Shown in pieces: positions 1,246-12,108 of a DNA stretch of 13,566 bases. Numbering within the stretch: the stretch's first letter is position 1; every line of letters begins with the position of its first letter. The stretch covers positions 1 to 13,566 of the forward strand of contig JAKJFB010000033.1 of NCBI GenBank assembly GCA_022705125.1, given 5' to 3'. Origin of the DNA: Pseudomonadota bacterium (lineage in GTDB: Bacteria; Pseudomonadota; Gammaproteobacteria; Pseudomonadales; UBA5518). Below the pieces are notes generated by a model. The model had not been told where the DNA came from, ran no database searches, and worked only from the letters and a program-made list of their open reading frames with translations. The position numbers and the translations under genes are program-made.

Positions 1246-2550
1246 ATGACAACGCGCAGCTTCAGCATTATCACGGGCACTCTCGTGGCACTGCAGGCCG
1301 GGGCGCTCTGGTTGGCGGGCACGCAAACGGCCGCGGCGATGCCTGAGTTCGCGCGCCGCTACAACATGAGCTGCGCCGCCTGCCATGCCGCCTTCCCGCG
1401 CCTGAACAAGTTCGGCGAGGAGTTCGCCGCCAACAACATGCGCCTGCCGCACTGGAAGGACAGCACCGTCAAGACCGGCGACAGCCGCCTCGCGCTGCCG
1501 GCCTATCCGCCGCTCGCGGTGCGCGCGCAGGCCTACGCGCAGGCGCGCGACGGCGAGTCCGTGGACCCGATCACCGGCGCGACCGACTCGGCCACCACCG
1601 ACTTCCAGTCGCCCTACCTTGTGAAGCTGCTCTCGAGCGCGCCGCTCAGCGACAACATCACTTACTACTTCTACGCCATTCTCGCCGAGAAGGGCACCAA
1701 CGGCGAGGCGCTGGTCGAGGATGCCTGGTTCCGCCACGCCGACATCTTCGGCACCGGCATCGGCATGCAGCTGGGGCAGTTCCAGCTCTCCGACCTGATG
1801 TTTCCGCGCGAGGTGCGGCTCAGCTTCCAGGACTTCATGCCCTACCGCATGGCCGGTATCACCTACGACCGCGGCGTGCTGTTCGACCGCGACCTCGGCC
1901 CGCTCGAGCTCGCGCTCGGTCTCAGCAACGGCAATGGCATCGAGGACAACCTGAACATCAACAGTCCCGGCTACCGCCGCCCGGACAAGATGTTCGACAA
2001 TGACAGCTCGAAGTCGGTGTTCGGTCGTGTCGGTACCGAGCTCGGACCGGTGGCCGCAGGGGTGTTCGGCCTGAGCGCCGAACAGCCCAGCGTGGCAACA
2101 GGCAACGCCGGAACGATCAGCGGCGATCGCGACACCGACAAGCGTGTCGTGGGCCTCGATCTCTCCGGGGATTTCGGCGGCAAGACATACTGGTACGCGC
2201 AGTACCTGTGGAATTCCTGGGACGGCTTCCTCGACGCAGACCCCGGCGAGGACTACCGCTGGGACGGTGGCTTCGCCGGCGTCGACTACATCCCCAACGA
2301 GCGCTGGGCGTTCTCGCTGCTCTACAACTATGCCGATGCCGGCGATCTCGCCGATACCGACACCATCTACGAAGGCATCGACATCAACAGCCTCAGCTTC
2401 ACGACCTCGTACTACTTCATGCGCAATGTGAAGGGCGTGATCGAGCTCAACTACGACTTCCTCGATCAGATCGATAAGGACGGCGAATTCTGGACCGGTC
2501 ACCTGAACAAGGAGAACTACATCCTGTTCGGCTTCGACACCGCGTTCTGA
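1246..2550 (+). CDS. Cyc2-like outer-membrane monoheme cytochrome-porin fusion
   Basis: A 434-residue preprotein. Residues 1-31 form a Sec signal peptide with a hydrophobic core and cleavage after TQTAAA. The mature protein opens MPEFARRYNMSCAACHAAF, with one c-type heme site, C43-A-A-C46-H47, only about 11 residues after cleavage, followed by PRLNKFGEEF. The remaining ~370 residues contain no further CXXCH and are rich in alternating aromatic/polar strands and acidic turns. The chain ends in Phe (GFDTAF), the usual end of an outer-membrane beta-barrel. A single N-terminal heme fused to a porin is the arrangement of Cyc2, the Fe(II)-oxidising outer-membrane cytochrome. The PxFAR...CxxCH...PxLxxFGxxF spacing matches that family as I know it. 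Iron oxidation itself is not shown, since related heme-porins occur in heterotrophs. It is the first gene of a two-gene unit. Confidence 0.75.
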   Translation: MTTRSFSIITGTLVALQAGALWLAGTQTAAAMPEFARRYNMSCAACHAAFPRLNKFGEEFAANNMRLPHWKDSTVKTGDSRLALPAYPPLAVRAQAYAQARDGESVDPITGATDSATTDFQSPYLVKLLSSAPLSDNITYYFYAILAEKGTNGEALVEDAWFRHADIFGTGIGMQLGQFQLSDLMFPREVRLSFQDFMPYRMAGITYDRGVLFDRDLGPLELALGLSNGNGIEDNLNINSPGYRRPDKMFDNDSSKSVFGRVGTELGPVAAGVFGLSAEQPSVATGNAGTISGDRDTDKRVVGLDLSGDFGGKTYWYAQYLWNSWDGFLDADPGEDYRWDGGFAGVDYIPNERWAFSLLYNYADAGDLADTDTIYEGIDINSLSFTTSYYFMRNVKGVIELNYDFLDQIDKDGEFWTGHLNKENYILFGFDTAF

Positions 2551-2551
2551 G

Positions 2552-3100
2552 ATGCATCGCCCCCCTTGCGCCGCGCGGCTGCGCGCCGGCGTCGCCGGCC
2601 TGCTCGGCGCGCTGCTCGCGCTGCCCGCCCCGGCGCAACAGCCGAGCCTGCAGCAGCTGCGCATCGAATCCGATCCCCCCGGCGCCGAAGTGCTGCTGAT
2701 CGGAGGCAGTGCCGGGCACACGCCGCTCAGTGTGGGCGAGCGCGCGATCTACCCCAACGACTACAGCGACGAGCAGGCGCCGCTGTACGGCCTGGTGACG
2801 CTGCGCCGTGCCGGCTGTGCCACCCATGTGCAGCGCGTCACGCTCGAGGACATCGAGCGCGGCATGCATGTGACGTTGGACTGCGACCCTGCAGTCGCCA
2901 CATCGGCGCCCGACGGCCAGGCGTCACCGGTGGCGACGGGCAAAGCCGGTCCGGTGCACGCCACTGCTCCCGTCGCCAGCGAATCGGTTTCCCAGCGTCG
3001 ACTGAGACAGCTGCAGGTGCTGCAGGAACTGCTCGACGAGGGATTGCTCAGCGCCGCGGAGGAACAGCGAATCCGGCGCGAGTTGCTGCGATCGCCGTAG
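2552..3100 (+). CDS. Secreted PEGA-like domain protein with C-terminal SHOCT-like motif
   Basis: 182 residues. An N-terminal signal peptide (hydrophobic residues 13-25, cleavage near APA-QQ at 28-30) has no lipobox Cys, so a soluble periplasmic protein is expected. Residues 37-110 resemble a PEGA domain (IESDPPGAEVLLIGG, then TPL). Cys89 and Cys111 could form a disulfide. A Pro/Ala/Ser linker (112-146) leads to a short helical tail (148-181, LQVLQELLDEGLLSAAEEQRIRRELL) that reads like a SHOCT motif, a short oligomerisation or anchoring helix pair. The ATG is one base after the stop of the cytochrome-porin and no good Shine-Dalgarno precedes it, so translational coupling is likely. It could be an assembly or accessory factor for the barrel, an inference from the coupling alone. 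Confidence 0.7.
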   Translation: MHRPPCAARLRAGVAGLLGALLALPAPAQQPSLQQLRIESDPPGAEVLLIGGSAGHTPLSVGERAIYPNDYSDEQAPLYGLVTLRRAGCATHVQRVTLEDIERGMHVTLDCDPAVATSAPDGQASPVATGKAGPVHATAPVASESVSQRRLRQLQVLQELLDEGLLSAAEEQRIRRELLRSP

Positions 3101-3103
3101 CGC

Positions 3104-3532
3104 TCACAGCAACTGACGACTCTGCTCGACCAGTCCGCCGAGTTCACGGCGCAACTCAGCCCACACCTGCAGTTCCGGACCGTTCCCGGGCGGAATCGTC
3201 GCGACGATGACATCGATCGTCGCATCCACCAGGCCCGCGTACCATTCGGGTGGCACACGGAGCGTGTCGTTGTGATGCAACACGGACCCGCCGAGCATGA
3301 TCTCGATCTCGCCCGGCGATTCGAACCAGTACATCAGGCAGTACAGAGCCCGCTCGACCATTTCGCCCTCGAGCTGCGCGTGGTTTCCCGGCCAGAGCCT
3401 CTCGAACGCTTCCATGGCAGCCGGGAAGCGTCCGTAATACCGCGCCATCGTGGGCCGGGTGATATCGCCGACATGCTCGACCACTCGTTCCAGGCTTTGT
3501 TCGAGCAGCCGCTTTTTTTCCTCGACCTGCAT
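3104..3532 (-). CDS. Divergent single-domain globin-like hemoprotein
   Basis: 142 residues, the length of a single-domain globin, with no signal peptide (cytoplasmic). The helix pattern fits a 3/3 globin. An amphipathic A helix (2-20) comes first, then a B/C segment MARYYGRFPAAMEAFERLW (29-47) comparable to the FYGRLF...LRPLF stretch of bacterial globins. Next come E helix ~51-69, an F segment VLHHNDTLRVPPEWY (84-98), G helix 98-112 and H helix ELQVWAELRRELGGLVEQ (120-137). Spacing from His87 to Val93-Pro94 equals that from His F8 to Ile-Pro in myoglobin (HATKHKIP), so His87 is the probable heme-iron ligand. The CD1 position, normally Phe, appears to be Trp47; Gln53 or Leu54 sits near E7. AGGAGGG at 3538-3544 supports the start. 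It is the last gene of the minus operon and may handle O2, NO or redox signals. No ready-made annotation was recognised; the call rests on pattern. Confidence 0.65.
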   Translation of the reverse strand: MQVEEKKRLLEQSLERVVEHVGDITRPTMARYYGRFPAAMEAFERLWPGNHAQLEGEMVERALYCLMYWFESPGEIEIMLGGSVLHHNDTLRVPPEWYAGLVDATIDVIVATIPPGNGPELQVWAELRRELGGLVEQSRQLL

Positions 3533-4575: not shown

Positions 4576-4597
4576 GTAGGTCGGCATTCATGCCGAC
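4576..4597. repeat. REP-type element: GTAG head plus hairpin
   Basis: GTAG (4576-4579) is followed directly by GTCGGCAT-TC-ATGCCGAC, 8-bp arms with a 2-nt loop. A GTAG tetranucleotide followed by a short palindrome is the layout of REP elements linked to RAYT transposases. The loop contains the stop codon of the kinase-like gene (TCA on the plus strand at 4588-4590), so the repeat supplies that protein's end and fills most of the gap to the esterase gene. A degraded copy is at 7051-7068. Confidence 0.6.
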
Positions 4598-5886
4598 GGG
4601 TGCCCATGCCTGCTCAGCAGGCGATCCAGACTGCCACCAAAGTCCTGCGTCTGCCACAGGTGCAGGAACACCGTGAAGATGTGCAACTGGTTGCGTGCGG
4701 TCTCGCTCCTGCGAAAGACCGGATCGCGCGGCCCGGACGCGCCGGCCGCTTCCGGAAGGCGGAACAGGATCCGCGCCGGCGCCTCCAGCATCCACGCGAG
4801 ACCCATCGTCGCGACATACAACTGCAGGTGGAGCTTGAGTTCCTCCACATCCAGGCGCGGTCCGCCGTGCGCGTGGAACTCGCGCGCGAACAGCTCCAGG
4901 AACTCCTGCAGGTGCCGATCCCAGACCTCGGGAGTGGCCCCGCTCAGGCTCCCCCACAGCGCGTAGGCGACGTTCATCTGCCTGACCCGCCCCCAGTCGA
5001 TCAGCCCGCACTGCAGCGCGCCCGCCGCATCGCGCCAGAACCATGCGTTGTCGATATGGGCGTTCCAGTGGCACAGCGCGACGAGGTCGCGATTGCCCTG
5101 CAGGAAGCGCTTGATCACCGCTTCGTGCGCGAGGAAGCGGCAGGCGTCGTGTTCCAGCCTCGCCAGGAAACCGGGCGCGCGAACATTGGCCGGCAGGAGC
5201 TGTGGATACTTCGTCGCGAACTCCGCGTACGCGGCGAGCAGCTCGCGCAACTGGCGCTCGTCGTAGCGAATCCGGTCGGCCGCGGCCGCCGCCTGCGCAT
5301 CGAAGGGAAACTGCACATCGACATCGGCCGTCAGGCGGCCGCCCTTGTGCGCGCCGGCCAGGCGGGCCAGCGCCCGGACAATCGCTCGGTAATAGCTCGC
5401 CGGGTCGGCCAGCTCGTGGTCGAGACACTTCTGGTGCTGCGGCTCTATGCCGTCCACGCCGAAGGGAATGCGCTGCGAGATCAGCACGCCGGTACCGGAG
5501 TCCTGATGGTAGTCGGCGTAGTAGGTCTTTGGCACGCTGACCGGAAAGTGCGCCAGCCGCGACAGGGCGGCGAAGCGCACCTCCGAGGCCATCTCGAACC
5601 TGCCACGGTCGCGCAGCGGATCGTTGAAATCACGCGAGAACTTGACGAAGAGATCGGTATGCAGATGCGGCGCGGGCGGATCGTAATCGACCGACAGGAA
5701 CAGCTTCTGGCCCGTGCTGCCGCCCGGGCAATTCTCCAGGCGAGTGATCCGCGCCACGCGCGTACCGGGATCGAGCGAGCCGAAGGCCTGGAACGCCGCG
5801 CTCAGAAAGACTGCACCCGCGGCGCGCAGCGCCTCGGCGTGCGCCGGGATCACCAGGCCCGTGACATCGCCGCGCTCGATCGCCAC
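4588..5886 (-). CDS. APH/choline-kinase-like phosphotransferase family protein with altered catalytic loop
   Basis: 432 residues from the GTG start. Fold features of the aminoglycoside-phosphotransferase/choline-kinase superfamily are visible: an N-lobe Lys82 (DLFVKFSRD) and Glu102 (SEVRFA) as candidate ATP-site pair, a catalytic loop at 273-280, and the metal-binding Asp297 in CGLIDWGRV. The catalytic loop reads HWNAHIDN where the family consensus is HGDxxxxN, so Asn275 stands at the place of the catalytic base Asp. The protein may be a poor or non-canonical kinase or bind a phosphorylated ligand; substrate unknown. The GTG at 5886 has GGAGGA 4 nt upstream and is preferred. An ATG at 5931 would add 15 residues and overlap the SDR gene by 20 bp without a good Shine-Dalgarno. 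The stop codon lies in a REP-type hairpin. Second gene of the operon. Confidence 0.8.
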   Translation of the reverse strand: MAIERGDVTGLVIPAHAEALRAAGAVFLSAAFQAFGSLDPGTRVARITRLENCPGGSTGQKLFLSVDYDPPAPHLHTDLFVKFSRDFNDPLRDRGRFEMASEVRFAALSRLAHFPVSVPKTYYADYHQDSGTGVLISQRIPFGVDGIEPQHQKCLDHELADPASYYRAIVRALARLAGAHKGGRLTADVDVQFPFDAQAAAAADRIRYDERQLRELLAAYAEFATKYPQLLPANVRAPGFLARLEHDACRFLAHEAVIKRFLQGNRDLVALCHWNAHIDNAWFWRDAAGALQCGLIDWGRVRQMNVAYALWGSLSGATPEVWDRHLQEFLELFAREFHAHGGPRLDVEELKLHLQLYVATMGLAWMLEAPARILFRLPEAAGASGPRDPVFRRSETARNQLHIFTVFLHLWQTQDFGGSLDRLLSRHGHPSA

Positions 5887-5890
5887 TGAA

Positions 5891-5896
5891 TCCTCC
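5891..5896 (-). promoter_or_regulatory. Ribosome binding site favouring the GTG start of the kinase-like gene
   Basis: Read on the minus strand, GGAGGA is 4 nt before GTG 5886. The competing ATG at 5931 lies inside the SDR coding end and lacks a recognisable site. Confidence 0.5.
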
Positions 5897-5911
5897 ACGG
5901 CTGGCAGCAAA

Positions 5912-6730
5912 TCAGATCGTCTCTCCCGCATCCACGAGCAGCGTGCTGCCCGTCATGAAGACAGACATGTCCGAGGCGCAGAACAGGACCGCACGCGCCA
6001 CATCGTCGGGAACCCCCACGCGCCCCAGGCGGCTACTGAGCATCGCGGGGATCTGCTCTGCCGTGATCGCGACGTCGGTGTGCTCCGACATGGCCAGCAG
6101 ATTGCCCTCGGTCACGCAGAAGGTGGGCGCCACGCCGAGTACGCGGATCGCATCGGGCGCCAGCTCCAGCGCCAGCTGGCGGGTCATTCCGCGCACGGCG
6201 TGCTTGGACGACACGTAGGCCGCGAGCCCGGGCGCCACGCCCTTGAAACCGGCGGTGGACGCCACGTTCACGATGACTCCACCCCGCGCGCCGGCCCGCA
6301 TGCAGCGAGCGGCCTCGCGTGCGCCGGCGAACACGCCCCGGGTATTGACGGCCAGCACCCGGTCCCACAGTTCGTCGCTCATTTCCGGCAGCGGGACACA
6401 GGGAAAAATGCCCGCGTTGTTCACCCATATGTCCAGGCCGCCGAACTCCCGGACCGCGCGATCCGCCGCGACCTTCACCGTCGCCGAATCGGTGACATCC
6501 ATGACCGCGCCGAGCACCCGCGCTGAGCCGCTCGCATCCAGCTCCTCCGCCGCCGAGCGTGCCAGCGCTGCGTCGATGTCTCCGACCAGCACATTGGCAC
6601 CGGCCTCCGCCAGGCGCCGCGCGATGGCCTTGCCCAGACCGCGCCCGCCCCCCGTGACAACCGCGCTGCGGCCGGCGAGGGAGTTGAGTTCGGTGATGGA
6701 TCGGCTCGAAACATCGGCTACTGATGGCAT
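5912..6730 (-). CDS. Short-chain dehydrogenase/reductase (classical SDR), probably NAD-linked
   Basis: 272 residues with every classical SDR mark. The cofactor loop TGGGRGLG is at 26-33. Asp51 at the end of beta-2 (VGDID) favours NAD(H) over NADP(H). NNAG is at 104-107, and the catalytic residues are Ser158, Tyr172 and Lys176 (AYVSSKHAV). The C-terminus (TGSTLLVDAGETI) is the usual SDR dimer end. It oxidises an alcohol or reduces a ketone in the cytosol; steroid-, terpenoid- or fatty-type substrates are common in this family but cannot be assigned. The start has GGAGAG 7 nt upstream (6738-6743). As first gene of the minus operon it is preceded by a candidate promoter at 6867-6895 and a leader of about 130 nt. 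Confidence 0.95.
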   Translation of the reverse strand: MPSVADVSSRSITELNSLAGRSAVVTGGGRGLGKAIARRLAEAGANVLVGDIDAALARSAAEELDASGSARVLGAVMDVTDSATVKVAADRAVREFGGLDIWVNNAGIFPCVPLPEMSDELWDRVLAVNTRGVFAGAREAARCMRAGARGGVIVNVASTAGFKGVAPGLAAYVSSKHAVRGMTRQLALELAPDAIRVLGVAPTFCVTEGNLLAMSEHTDVAITAEQIPAMLSSRLGRVGVPDDVARAVLFCASDMSVFMTGSTLLVDAGETI

Positions 6731-11127: not shown

Positions 11128-12108
11128 GTGCGCGTCGCCTCCGCGCTGTTCGACCTGCCGCGCATCTCGCGCGCATTTGCGTCGGATGAATTGTCGTAAT
11201 CGAAAGTTCGCTCGCTGAGCCGCGTGGCCACACCGCAGAACGAGGCGCAGTTGCTCGACTACGCGCAGCAGGCCACCGCCGAGCAGGTGCAGCGGCGTTG
11301 CCAGCAGATGCACAACGCCGACCGTGCGGCGTCAACGCACGACGTGAACGAGATCCACCGCGGGCGTTTCCTGCGTCGCTCGGTCGACGGTTGCGGGCGC
11401 ATGACGATTTCGGTCGAACTCACCGAGGAAGCCGGCGCGCTGGTGATGGCCGCGCTGGAGCGCGCGATGGCGGAGGCGGACGCATCACGTGATGCATCGA
11501 CTGCGGAAGACGAGGCGTCATTCCCCGCGCGACAGGCCGATGCGCTGGTCGATATGGCGCGGGCGTACCTGGCCGGTGAATCCGCGAAGAGCGCGTCACC
11601 CGCGGATCATTACCAGGTGGTAGTGCACGTCGACGAGGCGGCGCTGCGCGCGGAACCCGTCGAGGGGGCGCGCAGCGACCTGCCGATCGAGAGCGTGCGG
11701 CGCCTGTGCTGCGACGCAGGCGTCGTGGTCGTTACCGAGGACGACAAGGGCAATCCGCTCGACCTCGGTCGCAAGCACCGCGTGGTGCAGCCGGCGCTGC
11801 GCCGCGCGCTCATCGCGCGCGACCGGCACTGCTGTTACCCCGGCTGCGCGCATACGCGCTGGCTGGAGGCGCATCACGTGATGCATTGGATCGATGGGCG
11901 AGCCGCGCCCGGACCGCGCATGCGCGGTCAGCGGCGAGCGCCATTCGCCTGCCGGCGAATGGCCGGAGGGAAGACCAGCCTCGACAACACGCTGTTGCTC
12001 TGTTCAGCGCATCACCGCCGCCTGCACGAGGGCGGTTTCCGCATCCGCACCAACCACGCCGGCGAATGGTACTTCGAGACGGCAGCGGGAAAACGGATGT
12101 CGAACTGA
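11128..12108 (+). pseudogene. Degraded DUF222/HNH endonuclease (13E12-repeat family)
   Basis: The C-terminal part is typical of the family: residues equivalent to RVVQPALRRALIARDRHC, then CCYPGCAHTRWLEAHHVMHW (HNH first His pair), SLDN (the Asn) and LLLCSAHHRRLHEGGF (the last His). In the same frame upstream, 11128-11223 reads VRVASALFDLPRISRAF, then ASDELS-stop-SKVRSLSR, continuing into VATPQNEAQLL. This is normal DUF222 sequence interrupted by TAA at 11197-11199, where relatives have Tyr (LSYSKVR). The ~100 N-terminal residues expected before VRVA are absent. A remaining frame could start at GTG 11224 (294 residues) but that codon is an internal Val of the family. A 69-bp palindromic insertion interrupts the HNH motif. 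Full-length relatives are about 400-480 residues. A relic of a mobile or multicopy family. Confidence 0.8.
11898..11966. mobile_element. In-frame palindromic insertion (~69 bp) inside the HNH motif
   Basis: Family members read HWxDGGxTSLDN here. This copy has 23 extra codons between HWID and GGKTSLDN. The extra DNA contains a perfect 18-nt palindrome GACCGCGCATGCGCGGTC (11912-11929) and a hairpin GCCATTCGCC-TGCC-GGCGAATGGC (11940-11963), plus a direct repeat GGCGAGC (11897-11903 and 11933-11939). The exact edges are ambiguous by a few bases. It resembles palindromic elements that insert within coding frames (compare rickettsial RPEs), but I do not recognise it as a named family. Confidence 0.6.

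What the first reader, a model, noticed from the sequence alone, without database searches (positions are those of the whole stretch)
1246..2550. Cyc2-like cytochrome-porin in an apparently heterotrophic gene setting
The sequence shows a signal peptide, a single CAACH heme site about 11 residues into the mature chain, a CXXCH-free barrel-like body and a C-terminal Phe. That is the fused monoheme cytochrome-porin architecture known from Cyc2. None of the surrounding genes is an iron-oxidation or multiheme partner. It may be a Cyc2-related branch with another electron donor, or a heme-dependent porin.
Basis: partly seen in the sequence, partly recalled or inferred. Interest (0 to 1): 0.72.

Follow-up and report, generated by a model that had tools for sequence, protein, structure and literature searches.

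The report
Heme-tipped outer-membrane pore protein
The gene encodes a probable pore of the bacterial outer membrane that carries one heme at its front end, resembling a known iron-oxidising pore protein but belonging to a separate, apparently unstudied family that may pass electrons into the cell from a still unknown donor.

The parts
1246..2550 (+). Monoheme cytochrome-porin, 434 aa (P0001)
   Evidence: 1193 homologues at E<=0.001 among the 7996 candidates scored
1246..1338 (+). Probable signal peptide (residues 1-31)
   Evidence: read from the sequence; helix 3-25 in the model
1339..1515 (+). Short cytochrome domain (residues 32-90) with MPEFARRYNMSCAACHAAFPRL; heme site C43-H47 at 1372-1386
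   Evidence: invariant positions in 102 sequences; model confidence low here (residues 27-37 and 40-54 under 50)
1516..2550 (+). Predicted 16-stranded beta-barrel (residues 91-434), C-terminal Phe
1786..1863 (+). Stretch between strands 5 and 6, residues 181-206 (position of porin loop L3), among the most conserved; holds M185 (99%) and invariant D183, R188, E189, R191, D196, R201
   Evidence: loop name given by position in the 16-strand model, an inference
1522..1524 (+). Codon of invariant Arg93, aligned with the PLxxM methionine of Cyc2-type proteins
   Evidence: one search aligns that Met one residue earlier, with V92
2552..3100 (+). Adjacent secreted 182-aa protein: PEGA-like part, two invariant Cys, C-terminal SHOCT-like helix pair; ATG 1 nt after the TGA of the porin gene

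Best explanation
The protein is an outer-membrane 16-stranded beta-barrel whose N-terminal, covalently bound single c-type heme sits at or in the periplasmic mouth of the pore. A small soluble reductant enters the pore from outside and gives one electron to the heme, and the electron goes on to a periplasmic carrier encoded elsewhere in the genome. It works like Cyc2 but belongs to a separate family with probably different heme ligation, so the donor need not be Fe(II). In the subclade of the window a secreted PEGA/SHOCT-like protein, encoded 1 nt downstream, probably docks at the periplasmic face as an accessory or assembly factor. Shown by calls: sequence, conservation, predicted fold, family limits, adjacency. 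Inferred: heme position, electron transfer, inward direction, heme ligation, role of the partner.
For: Exactly one CXXCH in 77 of 77 clean loci; 16-strand model and porin matches; homology to Cyc2-type proteins over the heme region; profile similarity over the whole length to another cytochrome-porin family with a similar heme motif; conserved charged, Met-bearing stretch between strands 5 and 6; partner next to the porin in 21 of 79 loci with room; of 62 genomes searched, 13 have a strong partner match, and 13 of 13 of those matches lie beside the porin gene.
Against: I know of no redox assay of any member of this family (searches: judged by titles and starts of abstracts). No redox gene recurs next to it: 8 of 78 loci have a secreted CXXCH ORF within 2.5 kb, one of them a fragment of itself (L044) and one a second cytochrome-porin (L073). 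The heme segment of the model has pLDDT under 50, so the plug position is unproven. The PLxxM methionine is absent in 39 of 39 family members of the tree set. The partner is not next to 58 of 79 loci, so it cannot be essential for the family.
Confidence: 0.55

Rival explanations
1. It is an ordinary Fe(II) oxidase, that is, a divergent Cyc2 that oxidises dissolved Fe2+ for energy or detoxification.
For: Same architecture and nearly the published Cyc2 motif; 46 of 77 family members match my strict pattern for the motif of Keffer et al., a lower bound since some ranges start late. The Cyc2 tree of PMC7029218 (passages) already includes organisms not known to oxidise iron.
Against: Similarity to my Cyc2-type sets was found only over the N-terminal part; separate clade in a quick tree; invariant Arg for the PLxxM Met; fewer c-type cytochrome neighbours than Cyc2-type loci.
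Confidence: 0.3
2. It oxidises a reduced sulfur species (for example thiosulfate, sulfide or polysulfide) at the cell surface and feeds the Sox or a related chain.
For: SoxB over cut-off in 11 of 14 carriers against 137 of 355 non-carriers in a class sample (Fisher p 0.004; p 0.008 without the centre genome G002). Several named carriers bear names of sulfur oxidisers (Thiobacillus, Thiohalobacter, Thiohalophilus).
Against: Only 6 of 15 further carriers have SoxB over cut-off; pooled, 17 of 29 against 137 of 355 gives p 0.047. The carriers without it include both Rhodanobacter genomes, a Lysobacterales and a Wenzhouxiangella genome (G005, G006, G004, G008). The test is not corrected for kinship or genome size. 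No sulfur-oxidation family appeared among the 10 recurrent neighbour proteins scanned with Pfam.
Confidence: 0.15
3. The heme is a redox sensor or gate: a porin whose opening or stability depends on the heme state, moving a solute rather than electrons.
For: General-porin fold; conserved charged stretch at the position of constriction loop L3; no recurring cytochrome partner.
Against: The heme motif is shared with Cyc2-type proteins, and PMC8406198 (passages and sections 12 and 13) reports biochemical evidence of iron oxidation for one member of each Cyc2 cluster. I know of no heme-gated porin (recall).
Confidence: 0.15
4. Outward electron transfer: the heme discharges periplasmic electrons to an extracellular acceptor or shuttle.
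For: The architecture is in principle reversible; three Rhodanobacter loci (L011, L012, L014) have a COX1-family oxidase gene downstream, in two of them behind a gene for a protein with two CXXCH.
Against: A single heme suits soluble partners more than solids (inference); cytochrome b561 lies near the gene in only 6 of 81 loci and no other quinol-linked partner was seen among the 10 neighbour proteins scanned.
Confidence: 0.1

Closest known systems
Cyc2 (fused cytochrome-porin; clusters 1-3 of McAllister 2020 and Keffer 2021)
   Same: One CXXCH behind an AxPxFAR motif, PxL after it, over 365 aa, predicted 16-stranded porin
   Different: Own clade in a quick tree; homology detected only over the N-terminal part; Arg in place of the PLxxM Met; fewer neighbouring c-type cytochromes; PEGA/SHOCT-like partner in the window's subclade; activity untested
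Unnamed sister cytochrome-porins of about 520 aa (L118, L119, L124)
   Same: Heme motif VPAF[AG]RK[YF] and profile similarity over 399 columns
   Different: About 90 residues longer; no Pfam match for L118 and no functional name found here
General porins OmpC/OmpF and phosphate porins OprO/OprP
   Different: No heme domain; about 10-16% identity
MtrCAB/MtoAB/PioAB porin-cytochrome complexes
   Same: Outer-membrane barrel combined with c-type heme (PMC8406198, passages)
   Different: Separate decaheme protein and 26-strand barrel there; one heme fused to a 16-strand barrel here

Membership tests
Cyc2 | Signal peptide plus exactly one CXXCH heme site | tested here: met
   one CXXCH in 77 of 77 clean loci; signal peptide judged by eye only
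Cyc2 | AXPXFAR[Q/K][T/Y] motif upstream of CXXCH (PMC8406198) | tested here: not met
   Window reads AMPEFARRY: Arg at the Q/K position, all else fits. 46 of 77 family members fit my strict pattern, which also asks for the spacings and PxL
Cyc2 | PXL 4 residues after CXXCH | tested here: met
   CAACHAAFPRL; P51 and L53 invariant in 102 sequences
Cyc2 | Length of at least 365 aa | tested here: met
   434 aa
Cyc2 | 16-stranded outer-membrane porin | tested here: met
   By prediction only: 16 long strands, pLDDT 79.3; porin matches
Cyc2 | Falls in Cyc2 clusters 1-3 (published tree or FeGenie HMMs) | tested here: inconclusive
   Outside my Cyc2-type sets in a quick tree, but the published tree and HMMs were not available, my labels rest on motifs, and cluster 3 is very diverse
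Cyc2 | Fe(II) oxidase activity | not testable with these tools
   No assay possible
Cyc2-type (feature noted here, not a published criterion) | PxxM pattern (P[LPFV]xxM) starting 26-43 residues after CXXCH | tested here: not met
   14 of 14 cluster-1-type and 5 of 7 other Cyc2-type sequences have it (the other two read PIAAM and PLSLVM); 0 of 39 of this family; also 0 of 3 in set M, which falls on the Cyc2 side of the tree, 0 of 3 and 0 of 2 in the sister families
16-stranded general porins | 16-strand barrel fold | tested here: met
   Predicted model only
PEGA / SHOCT (partner gene) | Pfam gathering score | tested here: not met
   Window protein: PEGA 19.8 bits against a cut-off of 20.8, no SHOCT match listed; at E<=0.1, PEGA in 13 and SHOCT in 9 of 16 members

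The most novel reading that the evidence does not exclude
A functionally distinct class of monoheme cytochrome-porins, with heme ligation unlike Cyc2 (candidate distal ligands Met392 or Met185 instead of the PLxxM Met), an electron donor other than Fe(II), and in one subclade a dedicated PEGA/SHOCT-like partner encoded 1 nt downstream. It would mean that single-heme electron conduits across the outer membrane serve more metabolisms than iron oxidation, including those of bacteria regarded as heterotrophs.
Probability: 0.33. Interest if true: 0.75.

Novelty: new variant of a known kind. Interest (0 to 1): 0.5.

Why it matters
Cyc2-type genes are proposed as markers of iron oxidation. A look-alike family that meets most published recognition rules (one CXXCH, near-identical motif, predicted 16-strand porin, over 365 aa) but is separable by its barrel, by Arg93 for Met and by its gene neighbourhood could be miscounted as an iron oxidase. 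It also offers a test of whether fused cytochrome-porins can use other donors, because few carriers show a Cyc2-type gene beside it (1 of 14 at E<=1e-10, with at most 4 candidates scored per genome; 1 of 15 with all candidates scored).

Tried and rejected
Pfam and NCBIfam: no family reaches its cut-off for the window protein. This says nothing against Cyc2: three Cyc2-type proteins and one sister-family protein have no Pfam match at E<=0.01 either. PDB sequence searches with the protein, the family profile, the Cyc2-type profile and the partner profile gave no credible relative. The first AlphaFold2 job with 30 close sequences was too weak (pLDDT 60.7) and was replaced. The 50 rows shown in each are porins and other outer-membrane barrels; absence of another fold there excludes nothing.

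Conserved operon beyond the partner: rejected. Among 81 loci the most frequent other neighbour clusters occur in 8 (two-component kinase, and its regulator, at varying positions), 7 (MBL-fold ribonuclease) and 6 loci (cytochrome b561). My gene caller missed genes (it did not call the window's 2552-3100), so searches used six-frame scans. A first caller chose antisense frames and was dropped.

The rule also misses real cytochromes: the two-CXXCH proteins of L011 and L012 were not flagged. By the cruder rule, 17 of 514 neighbours within four genes hold a CXXCH. With the unnamed Cyc2-type loci alone the contrast is 7 of 17 against 8 of 78 (p 0.005). Of the six plasmid loci six have a cytochrome, but they may not be representative.

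Mutual exclusion with Cyc2: considered and rejected. Of 369 genomes 14 carry this family and 27 (my count from the list at E<1e-50) a Cyc2-type gene; one has both (G442), about what chance gives.

Greater conservation than Cyc2: considered; mean column identity is 61% in 102 family rows and 57% in 27 Cyc2-type rows, no real contrast. The difference lies in where it falls: heme core 0.83 against rest 0.66 in the Cyc2-type set, 0.77 against 0.74 here.

Promoter: none found by the scan. Organism of the window: not resolved; the few names among sulfotransferase homologues are mixed. Careful tree: unfinished after two runs; only the quick tree is reported, and it carries a long-branch warning. Heme position in the barrel could not be measured (no coordinates given, low confidence there).

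Literature: searches listed no paper that singles out this family, judged by titles and starts of abstracts; but the 1,593-sequence Cyc2 tree of PMC8406198 was not visible, and its [Q/K][T/Y] motif suggests that FARKY-type sequences, perhaps some of this family, are in it. The Cyc2 structure paper of Jiang 2021 was not held. Papers seen: PMC8406198, passages and sections 12 and 13; passages only of PMC10654088, PMC12442345, PMC7029218, PMC5371394, PMC13322032 and PMC10937671; others search listing only.

Full report
What is there. The ORF at 1246-2550 (+) starts with a probable signal peptide and reads on as MPEFARRYNMSCAACHAAFPRLNKFGEEF. The ORF list gives a TTG start at 1183, but the signal peptide and the aligned relatives fit the ATG at 1246. 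One nucleotide separates its stop from the ATG at 2552. Upstream and divergent is a sodium:dicarboxylate-type symporter; downstream of 3100 on the other strand is a 142-aa ORF without a family match.

Relatives. A protein search gave 1193 homologues at E<=0.001 among the 7996 candidates that were scored; in the 120 listed, every name shown is 'hypothetical protein'. A genome scan kept the best 80 of 99 confirmed loci, labelled mostly Gammaproteobacteria, some Beta- or just Proteobacteria; single loci labelled Arcobacter, Persephonella and Deltaproteobacteria are metagenome bins and may be mislabelled. Each of 18 genomes reached through such loci has one full-length copy. Sampling whole genomes: 14 of 369 in the class of a Thiobacillus genome, that centre genome included (E below 1e-160; the next matches are at 1e-16); 3 of 100 in its family, two of them already known carriers and one match cut short, apparently by a contig end; 2 of 398 in the phylum at E<=1e-20, one of them the centre. 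In the class and phylum searches at most 4 candidates per genome were scored, so these are lower bounds. The distribution is patchy.

Conserved sites. In 102 sequences the stretches 119-143 and 182-207 are the most conserved windows of 25 residues; the latter (SDLMFPREVRLSFQDFMPYRMAGIT) lies between strands 5 and 6, where general porins fold loop L3 into the pore (loop assignment is inference). Apart from the CXXCH His, the Met and His residues conserved at 95% or more are M185, M392 and H419. In the cluster-1-type set (27 sequences) the only ones are the CXXCH His and M85 of PLSGM. A PxxM pattern there is found in 14 of 14 cluster-1-type and 5 of 7 other Cyc2-type sequences, but 0 of 39 of this family, where invariant R93 is aligned with it (one search puts V92 there). 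Three M-type sequences on the Cyc2 side of the tree and the five sister-family sequences also lack it, so the Met does not mark every cytochrome-porin outside this family. That it is a heme ligand is my inference; no source that I read states it.

Relation to Cyc2. The Cyc2 recognition rules were taken from PMC8406198 (passages, sections 12 and 13). The window protein meets the sequence rules except for one letter (Arg for Gln/Lys). The cluster-1 label on my reference set A4 (L104 and 26 homologues) rests on motif (recall) and on names such as Thiobacillus, Azoarcus, Niveibacterium and Magnetococcales, not on the published tree; relatives of that query include plasmid loci of Acidithiobacillus ferrooxidans and Acidiphilium. 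Profile comparison of this family with A4 aligns 115 N-terminal columns (E 3.8e-10), with a second Cyc2-type set of three sequences 72 columns (E 2.7e-13), but with a sister family of about 520 aa 399 columns over the whole length (E 2.2e-17). In a quick maximum-likelihood tree of 68 sequences this family is one clade (SH-aLRT 100) and, with two sister families, is split from the Cyc2-type and M sequences (99); long branches are flagged and the careful tree was not finished. The A4 profile matches the family gene over the heme region only, with about 20-27 bits, in 13 of 15 genomes and misses it in 2.

Partner. The 182-aa product of 2552-3100 has a probable signal peptide, a weak PEGA match (19.8 bits, cut-off 20.8), two invariant Cys and a C-terminal helix pair matched by SHOCT in 9 of 16 members at E<=0.1. 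Iterated HMM searches find it directly downstream in 21 of 79 loci with enough sequence: the window, L001-L008, L011-L015, L017-L021, L023 and L044, that is, in 20 of the window and its 23 best-scoring loci and in one further locus. In 62 genomes (29 carriers, 33 non-carriers) 13 have a match below 1e-50; 13 of 13 are carriers and have it beside the porin gene (coordinates). Weaker homologues occur in 3 of the 33 non-carriers and as a second copy in one carrier; the one inspected (L130) is a likely lipoprotein with no cytochrome-porin beside it; L131-L133 were fetched but not inspected.

Other context. With one rule for both sets (secreted ORF of 70-450 aa with CXXCH within 2.5 kb), 8 of 78 loci of this family and 13 of 24 Cyc2-type loci are positive (Fisher p 2e-5). 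Three of the 81 loci given had too little flank; the script did not print which. Kinship is not corrected for, and the rule misses some real cytochromes. SoxB over cut-off: 11 of 14 carriers against 137 of 355 non-carriers in the class sample (p 0.004; 0.008 without the centre genome), but 6 of 15 further carriers; pooled p 0.047. A full-length Cyc2-type match exists in 1 of 14 (G442) and 1 of 15 (G012) carriers.

Mechanism. Best reading: single-electron relay across the outer membrane. Shown: covalent-heme motif, barrel prediction, conservation, gene pair. Inferred: heme at the periplasmic mouth as proposed for Cyc2 in PMC8406198, soluble donor reaching it through the pore, inward flow, accessory role of the partner. 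The donor is open; Fe(II) is possible, but the missing Met, the separate clade and the scarcity of cytochrome neighbours weaken a direct transfer of the Cyc2 function.

Verdict. It is a new variant of a known kind, more interesting if the donor proves not to be iron.

Noticed in passing
L118:1471-3036, L119:571-2133, L124:550-2136: Sister family of monoheme cytochrome-porins of about 520 aa; L118 has no Pfam match; profile similarity to the window family over the whole length
   Followed up: partly
L122:488-1702, L123:610-1803: Another small cytochrome-porin-like family of about 400 aa (AVPSFARKYEKKCSACH), on a long branch
   Followed up: partly
L073:4755-7447: A window-type cytochrome-porin followed by a second, different cytochrome-porin (PAFARQTGQNCTACH) on the same strand
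   Followed up: no
L011:8807-13962, L012:9788-14979, L014:9824-14927: In Rhodanobacter the porin and its partner are followed by a gene of one COX1-family cluster (Pfam tested in L011 only), in L011 and L012 with a two-CXXCH protein between, unlike the other loci
   Followed up: partly
L096:3924-6941: Caballeronia plasmid with the order HiPIP, Cyc2-type cytochrome-porin, c-type cytochrome: a compact possible electron-uptake operon
   Followed up: no
L143:2929-4622: Plasmid of the lichen-associated Polymorphobacter megasporae with a Cyc2-type gene overlapping a c-type cytochrome gene
   Followed up: no
window 3104-3532: 142-aa ORF on the minus strand with no Pfam, NCBIfam or PDB match
   Followed up: partly
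window 11224-12108: DUF222 plus HNH endonuclease, a domain pair that I associate with Actinobacteria (recall)
   Followed up: no
window 4588-5931: 447-aa ORF without Pfam or NCBIfam match at E<=0.1; it looks like a phosphotransferase by eye
   Followed up: no
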